Source: Nothopassalora personata (lineage: Eukaryota; Ascomycota; Dothideomycetes; Mycosphaerellales; Mycosphaerellaceae). From it: a stretch of 64,000 nucleotides of DNA. Below the pieces are notes generated by a model that was not told the DNA's origin, made no database searches, and was given only the letters and a program-made list of their open reading frames with translations. The stretch is taken from positions 1,488,001-1,552,000 of the forward strand of contig CM066291.1 in assembly GCA_033816765.1 (NCBI GenBank), in the 5' to 3' direction. The translations under genes and the position numbers were made by a program. How positions within the stretch are numbered: the first letter of the stretch is position 1; each line of letters begins with the position of its first letter. Positions 43,481-57,850 of the stretch are shown one piece after another.

Positions 43481-46096
43481 CTATATTTCTCTACACCACC
43501 GACCCCAGGCACCCAGCTCAACACCACTCATGCCGATCTCTTCTAGTCCCACGTCAACTCTCGCAACCTCTTTCCCGCCAGATCGTCCTTCTTGCATCAC
43601 CAGGCCAGACTCGATGAGTTCATCCCAAGCTCCTGTCGCCACCTCTTTGCCCCAGACTCTGCTTCCTGCACCTTGTGCTGCTCCTGCCGCTGAAGCCTGC
43701 AGCTTGGCCTTGCTGGCGAGGACTTTATACTCTTCGTAAGCAAGCGCGAAAGAGATGACTTCAGTGTTATAGATGTTGGTCAATCGAGCTGCACAGACGA
43801 GGAGTGCGAGTTGGAGGGTGCTCAATGATGGCAGAAGAGAGAGCTTCGAGTCCGGTGGTTGTAGGGCAGGTTGTGCGAAGTATGAGGTGAAGTGCTCGTA
43901 CAAGTCTTCGGAAGTCTTCGGCGCGAGGACGGGTAGTGTTGCAATTGCCAGGGTAAGTATAGCTAGGAAATCGGGTACTGACTTTGTCGTAGTGTAGAGC
44001 CGGCGAAGGTAGCGAGTACATTGCTCCGACGCAAGTATTTGCTCGCTCAAGGCATTCCATTCGGCCAAGTCAACTGAATGGTCCGCATTGGCGCTTCTCC
44101 TGCTGAGACCTGCCGTGGAAGAGTCGAGCTCCGAAGGCGCGATGCGCAGCGCATTCTCACAGATCTGCTGGAAGCTTTGCAAACTCTTTGCCAAGCTCAA
44201 ATACACGTATCGGTGGCTGAAACGACTCTTGACACGCTTCTCGAGGCTCTCGGCGACATCGATTCTGGTTGTCAGACCCAAGACAGCAATGGGAGCTTTC
44301 CGGCTCTGCGCAATGTCGAACAAGTTGTAAAGCAGAGTCTGGCGGGGATGCGTGGCAAAGAGCTCAAACTCATCAAGCACAAAGATGACGCTCTTCGTCA
44401 CCTGCTCGGGCTGGTCAGTGCCGGTCTCAGCAGGATGTGAGAGCAAGGCCAGCAGCTTCGACATTGTGTCGGCATAGTTCTTCGAGTTAGCTTCGTCGTC
44501 TTCAAGGTCCATTTCCCGGCCGAGCTGCCGCCATATCTCTCGAAGTGCGATCTTGTCGTCCGTGTGTGAGAAGCCATTCAGTCGCACAGCATGGAAATCG
44601 CCTGGGTGTTTGGTGCTCTGTTCTCGTAAGATGCTGTCGACCAAGGCAGTCTTGCCGCTCCCTCTAGCGCCGATGAGTAGCATGCTGTTGCTCTCTCCAG
44701 CAGTCACCGTTTGATTGACCAGAGAGAATACCTTTGCATACTCATCATCAAGATTCGTCAGAGGTATAGCACGCTTCTTGATAGCTTTCTGAAGTACTAC
44801 TGTCTGTATCTTCTGAAGTTGTTTGGGTTGGAATGTGCAGGCTGGGAGAGCGACCGGCTTCTTCTTCGATGGAAGTGTTGTTGCTTCCCTTGGAGTGATG
44901 AGAGTCTTCTGGGTCGCAGGCTTTGAGGTCAAAGCTGGCTCTATAGATTCCAATCGTTCGTCTCCGGAGTCATCTATCTCCATACGATTCTCTGGGTTAT
45001 GGCTCGGGGCTGACTTGACGCTGATACTGTCCTGGTCCTCTTTCCGCCTATCCAATGGCTTCGGCGTCCTCTGCACTAGATCCGGCTTGAAGATCTCTCG
45101 TTGAATCGGCTGCCTCTTAGACGAGCGACGAACTTCAGGATGGGAGGCCAGCTCATCTTCACTGTCAGCCACATCCGCCTGCTTTCGAGCTTCTTCTTCT
45201 AGCTCACGTATCTCATCCTCGAACGTTTTCTTCTCACCATACGTCCAGGTATGCTTCGTTGGATTGCTGTGAGTCCGAGCTGCTCGTGTTGGCGACACTT
45301 GCTGATGCCGTGCTCTTCTGTCCGTAGGAGGTTGTGGTACTTCTGCCGCCTCTTCGAAGCCATCTTCACTCTCGAGCTCACTCTCTTCGATGACCATCTC
45401 CTTCTCTTTCGGCTTGACGAAGTTCTCTCCAAATGTGGCAGCACCAGTCACAGCCTTCGCCTCGATGCCATTCGTTACGCTGCCATTCGTGGTTGATGTT
45501 CCTGACTGGACCGGTGGGCGACTGAACTGCTTGAAGAAGCCCGGAGTCGTGCCCGTCTTCTCTGGGCTGGCACTTTCCTGGGGTGTCTGGTTCCTCAGCG
45601 GATCCAAGACTTTCCTCGTGGGTGTTATGCCATTCCGTACGGGTGGCTTGCTCGCAGGTGGTGTTTTTGGTTGGGCTCGTCTCCCGCCGATTCTGCCAAA
45701 TGGTTCCCGGCCAACATTGGCCCCTTCAATATCATCGTACACATCCCCATTTTCACTCTCCCGCTTGGCTGAAAGATTCTTCGTCTTCTTGCCCCGTTCC
45801 AGCTGTCGCATCGCCTTGGCCTCTTTCCACGCATCCTTGGCGGATGGAGCGTTTCTGGGTGCTGATGATGGGTCATTGCGAGATGACTTGACTGCTGGCG
45901 ACGACTTGGAGTGTCTGACATCTGCCCCGTTGGCTGTGGTTGAGGCCGGGGGGGTCTGTCCGGTTGCTGGCGAACTCTGATGGGTTTTGCTGATCGGCGT
46001 GTCGTCCAGCTTTCTGCGCTTCGGCGCCCGCGAGGCTGACATAGTCTGCATGCGGGCTAGGGAGTCGACATGGTGCGCAATCCCAGTATCGAGCAA
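43481..46096 (-). CDS. ORC4: Origin recognition complex subunit 4
   Basis: A single 871-residue frame. Orc4 is an AAA+-type subunit of the six-protein complex that marks replication origins and loads the MCM helicase. The first 430 residues are low-complexity, rich in Ser, Pro, Lys and Glu, with basic patches, and probably disordered. The AAA+ core starts near 440: Walker A LLIGARGSGKTALV near 470, Walker B KSVIFVLDEFELFA near 574, a sensor region VLGLTTRIDVAESLEKRVKSRFSHR with the conserved Arg residues, then the C-terminal winged-helix region (residues 700-871). The core matches Orc4 in order; the N-terminal extension is long relative to yeast Orc4. The start could be at the second Met (residue 16), since the first 15 residues look unconserved. 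Confidence 0.93.
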   Translation of the reverse strand: MLDTGIAHHVDSLARMQTMSASRAPKRRKLDDTPISKTHQSSPATGQTPPASTTANGADVRHSKSSPAVKSSRNDPSSAPRNAPSAKDAWKEAKAMRQLERGKKTKNLSAKRESENGDVYDDIEGANVGREPFGRIGGRRAQPKTPPASKPPVRNGITPTRKVLDPLRNQTPQESASPEKTGTTPGFFKQFSRPPVQSGTSTTNGSVTNGIEAKAVTGAATFGENFVKPKEKEMVIEESELESEDGFEEAAEVPQPPTDRRARHQQVSPTRAARTHSNPTKHTWTYGEKKTFEDEIRELEEEARKQADVADSEDELASHPEVRRSSKRQPIQREIFKPDLVQRTPKPLDRRKEDQDSISVKSAPSHNPENRMEIDDSGDERLESIEPALTSKPATQKTLITPREATTLPSKKKPVALPACTFQPKQLQKIQTVVLQKAIKKRAIPLTNLDDEYAKVFSLVNQTVTAGESNSMLLIGARGSGKTALVDSILREQSTKHPGDFHAVRLNGFSHTDDKIALREIWRQLGREMDLEDDEANSKNYADTMSKLLALLSHPAETGTDQPEQVTKSVIFVLDEFELFATHPRQTLLYNLFDIAQSRKAPIAVLGLTTRIDVAESLEKRVKSRFSHRYVYLSLAKSLQSFQQICENALRIAPSELDSSTAGLSRRSANADHSVDLAEWNALSEQILASEQCTRYLRRLYTTTKSVPDFLAILTLAIATLPVLAPKTSEDLYEHFTSYFAQPALQPPDSKLSLLPSLSTLQLALLVCAARLTNIYNTEVISFALAYEEYKVLASKAKLQASAAGAAQGAGSRVWGKEVATGAWDELIESGLVMQEGRSGGKEVARVDVGLEEIGMSGVELGAWGRWCREI

Positions 46097-47200: not shown

Positions 47201-48178
47201 TCAAAGCACGCAAACCTTCGAGCCATCCTCCTCAGTATAACACGTCGGCTCAGTAGCACAATTCTGTTGCCCCTCCTCATCGATGGAGCACTGTCGCTTC
47301 TCGACCCCATCACGCTTCAGCACACAGGATTCACTGCCATCGTCATTCTCCTGGCACTGAGACTCTGTTTCGCAGTGCTGCTCGTTGTTCTCGTCGACGT
47401 AGCATTGCCGTTTCTTGAGAACGCAGTACTTTGAGCCGTCTTCGTTCTCGAAGCATTGTGGCTCAGTAGCGCAGTGTTGCTCGCCGTCTGCGTCAATGTA
47501 GCATTGGCGTTTGGTGAGGTGCTCGCTACGTTTGAGGACGCAGGCGATGGTGCCGTCTGATTGAGTCGTGCAGGTGGGTGTGGTGGAGCACTGGGATTCA
47601 CCCTCTTCGTCGACGTAGCATTGACGCTTGGCGAGGTCTTCGTCACGCTTCATGACGCAGGCGAGTGAGCCGTCTGATTGAGTCGTGCAGGTTGGCGTGT
47701 CATTGCACTGAGCCTGGCCGTCTGTGTCGATGTAGCATTGGCGCTTGGAGAGTTCACTGCGCTTCATGACGCATGTGATTGTGCCGTCGTCGTGATTGGT
47801 GCAGGTGGGAGTGTCGTTGCAGTGAACTTCGCCATCTTCGTCAACGTAGCATTGTCGCTTCGCGAGTTCTTTGCTTTCGGCACGCTTGAGTACGCAGGTG
47901 GTGGTGCCGTCGTCGTGCTCAGTGCAGATAGGTGTTGTGCTGCAGATTTGCTTCCCGTCTTGGTCAATTTGGCATTGTCGCTTGGCCAGTTCGTTCTCAC
48001 TTCGTCGCATCACACAGGCGACGGAGCCATCCTCTTGGGTTGTGCATTTGGGTGTTGTGCTGCATGTTTGATTGCCAGCTGTGTCGATCTGGCATTGTCT
48101 CCTGTCGAGTGGCGCTGCGAGGCTTGTGCCGGCTAGGGTAACGGCAGCCACTACTGCAGCGACGAAGGAAGACTTCAT
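47201..48178 (-). CDS. Secreted precursor of eight Kex2-flanked four-cysteine repeats, 325 aa
   Basis: An intronless frame. Residues 1-22 form a signal peptide, followed by PLDRR. Then come eight repeat units starting at residues 28, 68, 109, 147, 186, 225, 258 and 296. Every unit core is exactly 30 residues, begins Gln-Cys, ends Cys-Val-Met/Leu, and has cysteines at core positions 2, 12, 18 and 28 (C-X9-C-X5-C-X9-C). Each core is followed by a dibasic site (RR, KR or KKR), most by a spacer of 4-7 residues ending in a second Lys-Arg just before the next Gln; unit 6 has no spacer and unit 8 ends the protein. The design is that of KEX2-processed repeat proteins (KEPs): the Golgi protease would release eight similar peptides, each with an N-terminal Gln that can cyclise. 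A conserved Asp-Gly-Ser/Thr sits before the last Cys in most units. Function unknown. Confidence 0.85.
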   Translation of the reverse strand: MKSSFVAAVVAAVTLAGTSLAAPLDRRQCQIDTAGNQTCSTTPKCTTQEDGSVACVMRRSENELAKRQCQIDQDGKQICSTTPICTEHDDGTTTCVLKRAESKELAKRQCYVDEDGEVHCNDTPTCTNHDDGTITCVMKRSELSKRQCYIDTDGQAQCNDTPTCTTQSDGSLACVMKRDEDLAKRQCYVDEEGESQCSTTPTCTTQSDGTIACVLKRSEHLTKRQCYIDADGEQHCATEPQCFENEDGSKYCVLKKRQCYVDENNEQHCETESQCQENDDGSESCVLKRDGVEKRQCSIDEEGQQNCATEPTCYTEEDGSKVCVL

Positions 48179-52227: not shown

Positions 52228-53526
52228 TCAAAGCTCAGCGCGAGCTTCCTGTTCCACAGGCTTGCTGATCGGCACATTCAATCTCTCCCACATGCCTTCC
52301 ACGTTCATGTCTTCTCTGCCATCAAACTTCTCGATCACGATCGGCTCAGACTTGCCTGCGGCCTCGTCAGGATTAACGAAGACGACGTTCCGCTTGAGGC
52401 CGAGAGTCAGGTGTATCGCTCTCGGAGACTTCTCGAATTCTGCCGCAGCCTTTTGACCTTCGATCAGAGACAGTATGTTACTGGCAACGACTTTGGCCTG
52501 TGCTGCCCCTGGTTTGGCGGCTTTGTGTAGACCTGTATCCGCGATGTCACCGACAGCGAAGATGTTGGGATACTGATCGTCTTGAAGCTGCAGAGTCTTT
52601 TTGACACGAATAAAGCCGTTCGCTGGGTTGATGAGGGAGTTGGGATTCGTGGTCGGGAGGCTCTTAATCATGCCATTGTTCGCCTTTTGACCAGTGGCCA
52701 GTATGACGAAGTCCGCGGGGACTCGTTGGCCGTTTGTTAGCTCAACATCGACCGTCTTGCCGTCATTGCGGAAGCCACCTTCAGGTATCTTGGCTCGGAC
52801 CTCGGTGATCAACTCGATACCTTTCTCATCGAATGCGTCTTTCACGATTCTGTGGAAGTCGCTGTGGAATTGATGCATCAAGTTTGCCCGAGAGTGAACC
52901 AGCGTGACGCTCTTCTCCGGGTAGATCTCCTTGAGGTCTAGAGCCATCTGAACCCCAACCGCACCGCCCCCGACAATTACCACCGACTTCGATCGCGCAA
53001 GCTGACTCTGATAGCCTTTCAGATAATTTACCGAGGATGCATTATCGTCGTACGGCATCATTGATGGGGCGGCCAGGTGAGTACCGGTCGCCAAGACCAG
53101 ATAGTCGAAAGGTATCTTGTTCGAGCCGTTCCATTTGGAGTCAATCTGAAGATGGTCGAGATACACATGGGTGGCTCGAGCCGCTATCGTGGTATGCCGT
53201 GATGAGGGCGAGAACACGCCATTGTACGGTACAAAAGCCTTTTGTTCATGACCTGGCAAGATGGCGAATCTGGGCTGCATTGGCTGGTCAGTCTCGAGAA
53301 TGCACGGCAGGGTAGAAGGCTTACGAATGTAAAGATGTGATGGAAGTGGCTATGCGGCTCGACAAGAAGAACTCTGTGAGAAGCAGGTATAACGCTCATA
53401 AGCTCTCGAGCTGTGCTCTGATACCAAGGTCAGCTATAGTCCCGTGTTCGTGGACGGGAGGTCAAGCCTTACAATACCGACATAGCTGCCTCCTACGACT
53501 ACAACATTCTTCAGTGCAGAAGCCAT
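52228..53526 (-). CDS. AMID/AIF-like FAD-dependent oxidoreductase, 397 aa
   Basis: Exons 53526..53473, 53417..53325 and 53274..52228, with introns of 55 nt (GTAAGG ... GGTATCAG) and 50 nt (GTAAGC ... CCAATGCAG), both in phase 0. The N-terminus is a Rossmann dinucleotide fold (NVVVVGGSYVG) completed only after splicing. FDYLVLATGTH and a second nucleotide fold SVVIVGGGAVGVQMALDL (NAD(P)H binding) follow, then VILATGQKANN and NIFAVGDIADTG, the FAD-binding C-motif. The order and length match the AMID/AIF2 group (pyridine nucleotide-disulfide oxidoreductase superfamily; fungal members are linked to oxidative stress and NADH oxidation). No mitochondrial presequence is evident. The exact electron acceptor is not known. 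Confidence 0.9.
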
Positions 53527-56179: not shown

Positions 56180-57850
56180 ATGGCGTGGAGAGAAGCTGGC
56201 AGGGTTTTGCGGAGCCTCACCAACAAAGCTTCCCACACCACACTGGCCATACGGCAGCACAGGCGGTCGATATGCGCACAGTGCCTTGCAAGCCGCACGA
56301 CAAGCTGGCATGGCAGGATCACGGGCGATCTCGGGGAGATGCCAGCAAGAGCAAACCTTCGACACAATAGCCCGGCGCGGCGACATATGGCAACCATGGC
56401 AGACTACACGATCGATGAATACGGTAGGACGGGGCCAATAGCAGAGTACGACCGCAGAGTGAACTCGGGGCGGCTGCGGAACGATGAGCATCAGCGAGTC
56501 CTCATACACGAGCTACAGAGCCTACATGAGACATTAAGTGGCTATCAGCCTCCTCAGGTTGTGAGGCCAACTATCGAGTCCTTACGCCCGAAGAAGAAGT
56601 CCATCTTCGGCTCACTACTGGGTATCAACACCGTAAGCGAGCTCCAGATGCGGCCCCGACCAGATCTGCCAAAAGGGCTATACATGTATGGCGATGTAGG
56701 AAGTGGAAAGACCATGATGATGGACCTCTTTTTCGACACATTGCCGAGCAACATCAACCACAAGACTCGGATCCACTTCCACAACTTCATGCAGGATGTC
56801 CACAAGGAGCTGCACAAGATGAAGATGCAGTATGGCAATGATATCGACTGCATACCTTTCGTCGCGGCCACGATCGCCGAGAAGTCTTCTGTGCTGTGCT
56901 TCGACGAGTTCCAATGTACGGACGTGGCTGATGCCATGATTCTCAGACGACTAATAGAGAGTCTGATGGCTCACGGTACGGTGCTTGTGACCACCAGTAA
57001 CAGGCATCCGGACGAGCTGTACAAGAATGGCATTCAGCGAGAGTCATTCATCCCTTGCATACGCCTCCTCAAGGCTCAGCTTCGAGTCCTGAACCTTGAC
57101 TCGAAAACAGACTATCGCAAGATCCCTCGGCCTCCTTCGGGAGTATATCATCACCCGCTAGACGCTGCAGCCAAGACGCATGCCGAGAACTGGTTCAAAT
57201 TTCTGGGCGACCCTGAGAAGGACCCGGTACATAAAGCAACACAGACAGTCTGGGGTCGCGAGATCGTAGTACCTCGCGCATCGGGCAAAGCGTGCTGGTA
57301 TACATTCAACGAGCTGATTGGCAGCGCAACAGGTGCAGCAGACTACTTAGAGCTCGTGCAGCATTACGATGCCTTCATCGTGACTGATGTACCAGGTATG
57401 AACGTCCGATCCCGAGACCTTGCACGCCGCTTCATCACATTTCTAGACGCCGTCTACGAGTCAAGAGCGAAGCTGGTCTTAACAACAGCAGTACCTCTGA
57501 CTCAGCTCTTCATGTCTCGAGACGAAGTCGGCGATTTGCTTGAAAAAGCAGCGGGGTCTGGCAGTTCCGCCGCAAAAGAAGCCAAACAGGCGGCCAACGG
57601 TGGCGACGTCGATGATGCAATGAGGTTGATGATGGACGACCTGGGTATGAACATGGAGAGCATGAAGAAGAGCAACATGTTCACGGGTGATGAGGAAGCT
57701 TTTGCTTTTGCTCGTGCATTGTCTCGTCTTACGGAGATGGGCAGCCAGGAATGGGTTGAGCGCGGCCTGGGTCTTGAGCATCGAGGTGGCAAGAAGGAAG
57801 CAGATGATTGGATCAAAGTTAGGGGCCATTGGAGACAGGACAGTTATTGA
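56180..57850 (+). CDS. AFG1: Mitochondrial AFG1/LACE1-type ATPase
   Basis: A single 556-residue frame. Afg1 is an AAA+-related ATPase of mitochondria involved in turnover or quality control of respiratory-chain subunits. The first 70 residues are basic with many Arg and His, a long presequence. The ATPase core has Walker A YMYGDVGSGKTMMMDLF near 165-181, Walker B SVLCFDEFQCTD near 233-244, and TTSNRHPDELYKNG near 272-285, the sensor and arginine segment typical for this family. Downstream lie VTDVPGMNVRSRDLARRFITFLD and a C-terminal helical region. Length and motif order match fungal orthologues. The start at 56180 is the first ATG; a second Met near residue 70 (MATMADYTIDEYG) begins the conserved part and could be used for a non-imported form. 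Confidence 0.95.
   Translation: MAWREAGRVLRSLTNKASHTTLAIRQHRRSICAQCLASRTTSWHGRITGDLGEMPARANLRHNSPARRHMATMADYTIDEYGRTGPIAEYDRRVNSGRLRNDEHQRVLIHELQSLHETLSGYQPPQVVRPTIESLRPKKKSIFGSLLGINTVSELQMRPRPDLPKGLYMYGDVGSGKTMMMDLFFDTLPSNINHKTRIHFHNFMQDVHKELHKMKMQYGNDIDCIPFVAATIAEKSSVLCFDEFQCTDVADAMILRRLIESLMAHGTVLVTTSNRHPDELYKNGIQRESFIPCIRLLKAQLRVLNLDSKTDYRKIPRPPSGVYHHPLDAAAKTHAENWFKFLGDPEKDPVHKATQTVWGREIVVPRASGKACWYTFNELIGSATGAADYLELVQHYDAFIVTDVPGMNVRSRDLARRFITFLDAVYESRAKLVLTTAVPLTQLFMSRDEVGDLLEKAAGSGSSAAKEAKQAANGGDVDDAMRLMMDDLGMNMESMKKSNMFTGDEEAFAFARALSRLTEMGSQEWVERGLGLEHRGGKKEADDWIKVRGHWRQDSY

What the first reader, a model, noticed from the sequence alone, without database searches (positions are those of the whole stretch)
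47201..48178. Eight-unit Kex2-processed precursor of 30-residue four-cysteine peptides
The gene encodes a signal peptide and eight repeats whose cores all have exactly 30 residues, start Gln-Cys and keep cysteines at positions 2, 12, 18 and 28, while positions 3-10 and 19-22 vary. Dibasic sites bracket nearly every core. This looks like a precursor that delivers a small family of related disulfide peptides from one message, perhaps with pyroglutamate N-termini. Fixed core length and Cys frame with variable loops suggest selection on structure. I saw no DUF3328 (UstYa-type) or tyrosinase gene in the window, so a ustiloxin-like ribosomal peptide pathway is not indicated.
Basis: partly seen in the sequence, partly recalled or inferred. 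Interest (0 to 1): 0.9.

Follow-up and report, generated by a model that had tools for sequence, protein, structure and literature searches.

The report
Fungal precursor of eight disulfide peptides
A fungal gene encodes a secreted-type protein made of eight similar but distinct four-cysteine mini-peptides, each framed by cutting sites, so that one message can probably release a small family of disulfide peptides whose job is still unknown.

Summary
On the minus strand, 48178-47201 is an uninterrupted 325-codon frame: a signal-like N-terminus and eight cores of exactly 30 residues, Q-C-x9-C-x5-C-x9-C-x2. All 8 cores follow RR/KR; 7 of 7 non-terminal cores are followed by a dibasic site; none of 15 dibasic positions lies inside a core. 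All 14 sites with P1 Arg have Leu or Val at P4, which Kex2 prefers (passages of PMC8528282). Correction: D5 is invariant and G8 is in 7 of 8 cores, so positions 3-10 do not vary freely.

Relatives occur in Zymoseptoria brevis, Cercospora zeina, Sphaerulina musiva and Ramularia collo-cygni, all Mycosphaerellaceae. No Pfam match reached its cut-off and no PDB sequence matched. AlphaFold2 predicts two beta-hairpins per core.

Best reading: a lineage-restricted KEP-like (Kex2-processed repeat) precursor of acidic, non-identical double-hairpin disulfide peptides. Its cores are diversified (37-67% identical), not near-copies as in textbook KEPs. It is not an alpha-pheromone, UstYa-type RiPP or Cin1-like protein by the features tested. 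Cleavage, disulfides, expression and function are undemonstrated; earlier listing in supplementary KEP tables could not be checked.

The parts
47201..48178 (-). whole precursor frame, 325 codons plus stop, no interruption (no transcript seen)
48116..48178 (-). signal-peptide-like N-terminus (residues 1-21, MKSSFVAAVVAAVTLAGTSLA); exact cut not computed
   Evidence: sequence; similar MK/MR...F...AAP starts in the five homologues aligned
48098..48115 (-). short pro-segment APLDRR ending in the first dibasic site
48008..48097 (-). core 1 (residues 28-57)
47978..48007 (-). spacer RR-SENELA-KR
47888..47977 (-). core 2 (residues 68-97)
47855..47887 (-). spacer KR-AESKELA-KR
47765..47854 (-). core 3 (residues 109-138)
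47741..47764 (-). spacer KR-SELS-KR
47651..47740 (-). core 4 (residues 147-176)
47624..47650 (-). spacer KR-DEDLA-KR
47534..47623 (-). core 5 (residues 186-215); the sequence folded by AlphaFold2
47507..47533 (-). spacer KR-SEHLT-KR
47417..47506 (-). core 6 (residues 225-254)
47408..47416 (-). KKR, the only thing between cores 6 and 7
47318..47407 (-). core 7 (residues 258-287); the one core with N at position 8 instead of G
47294..47317 (-). spacer KR-DGVE-KR
47204..47293 (-). core 8 (residues 296-325), followed directly by the stop codon 47203-47201

Best explanation
The gene encodes a secreted polyprotein that works like a KEP (Kex2-processed repeat protein). It enters the secretory pathway by its signal peptide; each core folds as two beta-hairpins, each probably closed by one disulfide (C2-C12, C18-C28); Kex2 cuts after the KR/RR on both sides of each core; a Kex1-type carboxypeptidase trims the trailing basic pair; and eight different acidic 30-mers, possibly with pyroglutamate ends, are released. 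The spacers are discarded linkers. The most likely role of the released set is outside the cell, as ligand- or effector-type peptides with a shared scaffold and diversified surface loops, in fungi whose named relatives are plant-associated (recalled). Shown here: the architecture, the cut-site pattern, relatives in other genera, one kexin-type match in the genome, and a predicted hairpin fold. Inferred: cleavage, disulfide pairing, pyroglutamate, and above all the role.
For: 8 of 8 cores of 30 residues in one Cys frame, all preceded and 7 of 7 non-terminal ones followed by dibasic sites. 14 of 14 sites with P1 Arg have Leu or Val at P4 against 11.9% L/I/V in the protein after residue 22 (the binomial 1e-13 overstates it, since the repeats share descent). 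Kex2 preference for KR with aliphatic P4: passages of PMC8528282. Spacers vary in length and sequence while core length does not. Homologues in Z. brevis (E 4.9e-51) and C. zeina (1.3e-40), S. musiva and R. collo-cygni, with similar signal peptides and KR-QC junctions at most cores. In the 22 cores counted (picked by their Cys pattern): G24 in 22; G8, Q1 and D23 in 21; P16 in 20. AlphaFold2 on core 5: mean pLDDT 85.8 (five models 76.6-85.8), strands 2-4, 10-12, 17-20, 26-29, which in antiparallel register puts C2 opposite C12 and C18 opposite C28. In the whole-precursor model 7 of 8 cores show four strands of 3 or more residues; core 7 shows two. One P_proprotein (kexin) match in the genome.
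Against: No transcript, peptide or cleavage data. The full-precursor model is poor (pLDDT 51.0, pTM 0.23) and the core model has pTM 0.30, so the arrangement of the two hairpins is unknown and the pairing is read from strand register only. Site 1 has Asp at P3, which PMC8528282 calls unfavourable. Some relatives have fewer or weaker sites: S. musiva P0005 has only two cores and no dibasic pair after core 1; P0006 and P0007 have Asn at P4 before their last core; L/I/V at P4 is 7 of 10 in P0001, 5 of 7 in P0002, 1 of 2 in P0005, 3 of 5 in P0006 and 2 of 5 in P0007. Nothing in the sequence identifies a target.
Confidence: 0.72

Rival explanations
1. Uncut repeat protein: the eight modules stay joined and act together as a multivalent secreted or wall-bound protein, as Venturia Cin1 is thought of; the dibasic sites are incidental or partly used.
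For: No cleavage data exist. Relatives with only two or three modules (P0005, P0006, P0007) still look like secreted modular proteins. Cin1 is an eight-repeat candidate effector listed with unknown function and location (passages of PMC4617103).
Against: Placement of the 14 Kex2-type sites strictly between cores, none inside, all with Leu/Val at P4; spacer length ranges from 0 to 7 residues; cores 6 and 7 are separated by KKR alone.
Confidence: 0.15
2. Alpha-type mating pheromone precursor or a close derivative.
For: Same general layout (signal peptide, KR-framed repeats). Distant relatives P0004 and P0011 carry single two-Cys units such as KRQCYINEKGEQIC, and a two-Cys alpha pheromone is reported for 13 Dothideomycetes (PMC6339444, Results read). 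The genome has a Ste2 receptor.
Against: Cores of 30 residues with four Cys exceed the 9-24 aa pheromone range given in PMC6339444. Cores are 37-67% identical instead of near-identical. No XA/XP follows any of the 14 sites. No MF_alpha family among the Pfam matches.
Confidence: 0.04
3. Surface peptides of the repellent (Rep1) type that coat hyphae. This shares the cutting steps with the best explanation and differs in the role.
For: Rep1 is cut by Kex2 into peptides of 35-53 aa (and one of 228 aa) that form amyloid-like fibrils on hyphae (passages of PMC4617103). Beta-rich cores could assemble.
Against: Rep1 peptides are described as amphipathic. Cores here are acidic (computed charge -2.3 to -9.2), with a fixed cystine frame.
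Confidence: 0.12
4. Antimicrobial peptide polyprotein like Ib-AMP of Impatiens. This too shares the cutting steps and differs in the role.
For: Ib-AMP1-4 come from one precursor with six four-Cys peptide domains and acidic spacers (passages of PMC10136942).
Against: Ib-AMPs are highly basic with Cys order CCX8CX3C; the cores here are acidic, with C-x9-C-x5-C-x9-C.
Confidence: 0.08

Closest known systems
Kex2-processed repeat proteins (KEPs), Le Marquer 2019 PMC6339444 and Umemura 2020 PMC7329392
   Same: Signal peptide, at least three repeats framed by KR/RR, core length within 8-100 aa; no UstYa gene near, as for most KEPs (22% have one, abstract of PMC7329392)
   Different: Cores are 37-67% identical to each other, not identical or nearly identical; each has four Cys in a fixed frame. 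I did not meet this motif in the parts of the two papers that I read; their supplementary tables were not available, so earlier listing cannot be excluded
Uncharacterised Mycosphaerellaceae proteins: Z. brevis TI39_contig392g00031, C. zeina BST61_g6384, S. musiva SMMN14_06133, R. collo-cygni RCC_03651
   Same: Homologous: similar signal peptide, Q-C-x9-C-x5-C-x9-C cores, KR-QC junctions at most cores
   Different: Fewer full cores by the strict pattern: 4, 3, 2 and 3 against 8 here; S. musiva core 1 has six residues in the middle loop; one Z. brevis core starts Ala-Cys
Ustilago maydis Rsp1, Hum3, Rep1 (passages of PMC4617103)
   Same: Repeat proteins with Kex2 sites between repeats in a plant pathogen
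   Different: Not compared by sequence here; repeats of 18 or 21, 31-36 and 34-55 aa, with no cystine frame mentioned in the passages read
Venturia inaequalis Cin1
   Same: Eight imperfect repeats, Dothideomycete, function unknown
   Different: Repeats of 52-64 aa with helix-loop-helix fold, another order (Venturiales); here 30-aa cores predicted as beta-hairpin pairs with Kex2 sites
Ib-AMP precursor of Impatiens balsamina
   Same: One transcript, several four-Cys peptides, acidic spacers
   Different: Plant, 20-aa basic peptides, other Cys spacing; analogy only

Membership tests
KEP (Umemura 2020 criteria) | Signal peptide | tested here: inconclusive
   Typical charged start, hydrophobic stretch and A-x-A by eye, similar in the five homologues aligned; no signal-peptide program available
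KEP (Umemura 2020 criteria) | At least 3 repeats of 8-100 aa between KR/KK/RK/RR | tested here: met
   8 cores of 30 aa; criterion from Methods of PMC7329392
KEP (Umemura 2020 criteria) | Passes that survey's tandem-repeat scoring step | not tested
   The scoring (seed of 40 aa, score over 0.6) was not rerun
KEP (Le Marquer 2019 wording) | Repeats identical or nearly identical | tested here: not met
   11-20 of 30 residues shared between cores in the 28 pairs; wording from abstract of PMC6339444
KEP | Kex2 actually releases the peptides | not testable with these tools
   Only the site pattern: 14 of 14 with Leu/Val at P4
Ascomycete alpha-pheromone precursor | Near-identical repeats of 9-24 aa | tested here: not met
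   30 aa, 37-67% identity; range from PMC6339444
Ascomycete alpha-pheromone precursor | Ste13 signature (XA or XP after the Kex2 site) | tested here: not met
   After the 14 sites: QC eight times, otherwise SE three times, AE, DE, DG
UstYa (DUF3328) type RiPP precursor | UstYa gene nearby | tested here: not met
   15 match stretches in the genome, none in the window; nearest on this contig about 4.2 Mb away
Cin1-type repeat protein | 52-64 aa helical repeats | tested here: not met
   30 aa cores, predicted strands and no helices
Rep1 repellents | Amyloid-like fibrils at hyphal surface | not testable with these tools
   none

The most novel reading that the evidence does not exclude
One fungal message carries a library of non-identical, cystine-closed double-hairpin peptides. 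The scaffold is fixed and the surface loops are diversified, each core is a separate ligand, and lineages lengthen or shorten the library by local duplication followed by divergence: the units of this gene are on average about as unlike each other as units of different genera. This would be a diversified-ligand polyprotein strategy in fungi, distinct from pheromone-like copies of one peptide.
Probability: 0.3. Interest if true: 0.7.

Novelty: new variant of a known kind. Interest (0 to 1): 0.47.

Why it matters
The KEP definition read here rests on near-identical repeats (abstract of PMC6339444), and the function of most KEP peptides is unknown (abstract of PMC9769878, as shown in the listing). 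A family with a hard structural frame (30 residues, four Cys, two Gly turns) and diversified loops gives a clear test object: predicted masses can be looked for directly, and the core frame can be used to search other genomes whose repeats may be too divergent for identity-based KEP detection. If the eight cores prove to be separate bioactive ligands, one gene would offer a natural scaffold library.

Tried and rejected

Internal duplication: both halves of a core have C-x5-G-x3-C (7 of 8 cores for the first half), so I tested whether they are duplicates. Over all 362,880 column permutations the fraction as good was 0.033 (8 cores) and 0.029 (23 cores); without the Gly column 0.28 and 0.26. Only the acidic-Gly turn agrees, so duplication is not shown. 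A first version wrongly included a phase-shifted ninth unit and is replaced.

Other copies in the genome: C6:3356486 (E 0.05) is in a Ser-rich frame; C6:3892094 (E 0.012, one stop) showed no convincing relative in its six frames. Neither is taken as a paralogue. The unit tree (23 units, 28 columns; 2 of 20 inner branches starred, 16 open) is too weak for firm orthology. The sigma-70 scan does not apply to a fungus and is not used. Two lines of notebook entry 2 are too strong and are corrected in this report: V29 is P4 at 6 of 7 downstream sites, not all, and cores 3-5 are not a resolved group in the tree.

Rows dropped before counts: P0008, P0009, P0010 and P0012 (apparently misframed predictions), P0003 (near-copy of P0005), P0004 and P0011 (single two-Cys units), the incomplete third repeat of P0001 and the truncated fourth of P0002 (no full four-Cys pattern). 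P0005 core 1 was left out of the 22-core column count because of its six-residue loop, but is in the 23-unit tree and. The unit pattern asked for Q or A before the first Cys; the looser pattern, with any residue there, found the same cores plus the phase-shifted one. Homologue searches: 4 proteins at E up to 0.001, 11 at E up to 10 (only 7998 candidates scored), 3 at E up to 1.

Papers: searches (listings with starts of abstracts; two searches returned none). Read: PMC6339444 abstract, whole Results, first part of Discussion, passages; PMC7329392 abstract, Methods, passages; passages of PMC4617103, PMC5412055, PMC8528282, PMC10136942, PMC9769878. PMC12676973 and PMC4979122 were searched for the gene numbers and Kex2 in the main text without a hit.

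Full report
What is there. The window lies on contig C5 of an unnamed 54.5 Mb genome in 40 contigs. On its minus strand 48178-47201 is an uninterrupted reading frame of 325 codons. The protein begins with a signal-peptide-like stretch (MKSSFVAAVVAAVTLAGTSLA-APLDRR) and continues as eight cores of exactly 30 residues, all Q-C-x9-C-x5-C-x9-C-x2, separated by spacers of 6, 7, 4, 5, 5, 0 and 4 residues between their dibasic sites; cores 6 and 7 are joined by KKR alone. Invariant in the eight cores are Q1, C2, D5, C12, C18, D23, G24, C28 and V29; G8 is in 7 of 8, and position 4 is I or V. So the finding's 'positions 3-10 vary' needs correction.

Cut sites. Of 15 dibasic positions none lies within the 240 core residues, although only 63 residues lie outside the cores after residue 22. 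The 14 sites with P1 Arg have Leu (7) or Val (7) at P4, against 11.9% L/I/V in the protein after residue 22. Kex2 is described as preferring KR with aliphatic P4, best Leu (passages of PMC8528282). The repeats share descent, so the binomial value of 1e-13 is not a true probability. The invariant V29 of the core is the P4 residue at 6 of 7 downstream sites (at KKR it is L30), which may be why it is invariant; core 8, which has no downstream site, keeps it too. The first site has Asp at P3, which the same paper calls unfavourable. The genome has one match to the P_proprotein domain of kexins.

Relatives. A protein search gave Z. brevis P0001, C. zeina P0002 and two weaker unnamed hits. A profile of this protein and three of these hits (A1) reached S. 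musiva P0005, R. collo-cygni P0006 and the unnamed P0007-P0011 (P0008-P0010 look misframed). Lookups place all four named species in Mycosphaerellaceae. The window's organism is therefore probably of the same order, an inference. By the strict four-Cys pattern P0001, P0002, P0005, P0006 and P0007 have 4, 3, 2, 3 and 3 full cores, against 8 here. In the 22 cores with the five-residue middle loop (picked by their Cys, so the Cys prove nothing) G24 is in 22; Q1, G8 and D23 in 21; P16 in 20. Two distant hits, P0004 (phmmer E 7.8e-5 with this protein, 1.1e-10 between P0004 and C. zeina) and P0011 (profile E 5.8e-4), carry KR-framed single two-Cys units. A wider family of one-hairpin relatives is possible.

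Diversification. Cores of this gene share 11 to 20 of 30 residues (28 pairs). Mean identity within the gene is 0.53 over 28 columns, against 0.51 between proteins (188 pairs), so the array is not kept uniform. Against full independence, the window cores do cluster in the unit tree (3 changes of label against a shuffled mean of 6.8, 0 of 500 shuffles as low), as local duplication would give. The tree pairs window cores 1-2 (95/87), puts them next to Z. brevis core 1 (84/77), groups 6-8 (89/95) and pairs the first cores of P0006 and P0007 (98/90); cores 3-5 are nearest to each other by path but not resolved, and 16 of 20 inner branches are open. Crude Nei-Gojobori values give dN above dS in 2 of 17 usable pairs, and 11 pairs give no dS. 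Old duplications under constraint fit this better than recent positive selection, but 30 codons give little power.

Structure. AlphaFold2 on core 5 with the eight window cores as alignment gave mean pLDDT 85.8, pTM 0.30 and strands 2-4, 10-12, 17-20, 26-29. In antiparallel register C2 faces C12 and C18 faces C28. That pairing is my reading; no coordinates were available. The whole precursor with five homologues folded poorly (pLDDT 51.0) but shows four strands in 7 of 8 cores. No fold match was significant. The two halves of a core look alike (C-x5-G-x3-C), but a test does not establish duplication.

Surroundings. Of 34 frames of 170 aa or more I scanned 20 with Pfam, besides the precursor itself. 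Ten of the 20 had a match over its cut-off: ORC4 at 43481-46096, AFG1 ATPase at 56180-57850, a pyridine-nucleotide oxidoreductase at 52228-53280, phosphoglucose isomerase (two frames), MutS, aquaporin (MIP), ARV1, HRQ1-type helicase and an AMP-binding fragment; ten had none. UstYa-family genes occur in the genome (15 match stretches) but none in the window. No peptide-modifying cluster is indicated, within these limits.

Interpretation. The best reading is a KEP-like precursor of eight acidic, disulfide-framed double-hairpin peptides acting outside the cell. By the wording of Le Marquer 2019 (identical or nearly identical repeats) it does not fit; by the length and site criteria of Umemura 2020 it does, apart from that survey's repeat-scoring step, which I did not run. 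It is not an alpha-pheromone by length, Cys number, copy identity and lack of Ste13 signature. It is not Cin1-like by predicted fold and length. It differs from antimicrobial Ib-AMPs by charge and Cys order. Cleavage, pairing, expression and role are undemonstrated, and the supplementary tables that could show an earlier listing were not available. The odds given to the role rivals (surface coat, antimicrobial) overlap with the best explanation, since they share its cutting steps.

Noticed in passing
P0007 residues 22-43 and P0012 residues 22-24 onward: In Ramularia-like P0007 and Sphaerulina-like P0012 the frame after the first KR begins VS or VC and rejoins a QC core later (P0007) or is lost (P0012), as if an intron were retained exactly at the KR/QC junction; the window frame is contiguous there. 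Judged from protein predictions only.
   Followed up: no
P0001 residues about 107-170: The third repeat of the Z. brevis protein loses its second half and runs into a Pro/Glu-rich stretch, a decayed or re-used unit.
   Followed up: no
P0001 and P0002 spacers: Spacers such as KREAEAEV... and KRDAEEAEA... in Z. brevis and C. zeina resemble Ste13-type XA dipeptides after a Kex2 site, but sit before a further KR rather than before the core; the window gene lacks them.
   Followed up: partly
P0004, P0011: Single two-Cys KR-framed units (KRQCYINEKGEQIC; KRQCYFWIDEQGVEHYSC) from an unnamed ENA contig and a JGI contig; possibly a wider family of one-hairpin peptides.
   Followed up: partly
G000:C1:4422504-4423529: Ste2-type receptor gene in the same genome (PF02116, two stretches, best E 5.4e-63).
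   Followed up: no
window 43481-46096 (-) and 47201: The precursor gene lies about 1.1 kb from the ORC4 gene in a region with several housekeeping genes; synteny in relatives could date the gene but could not be examined.
   Followed up: no
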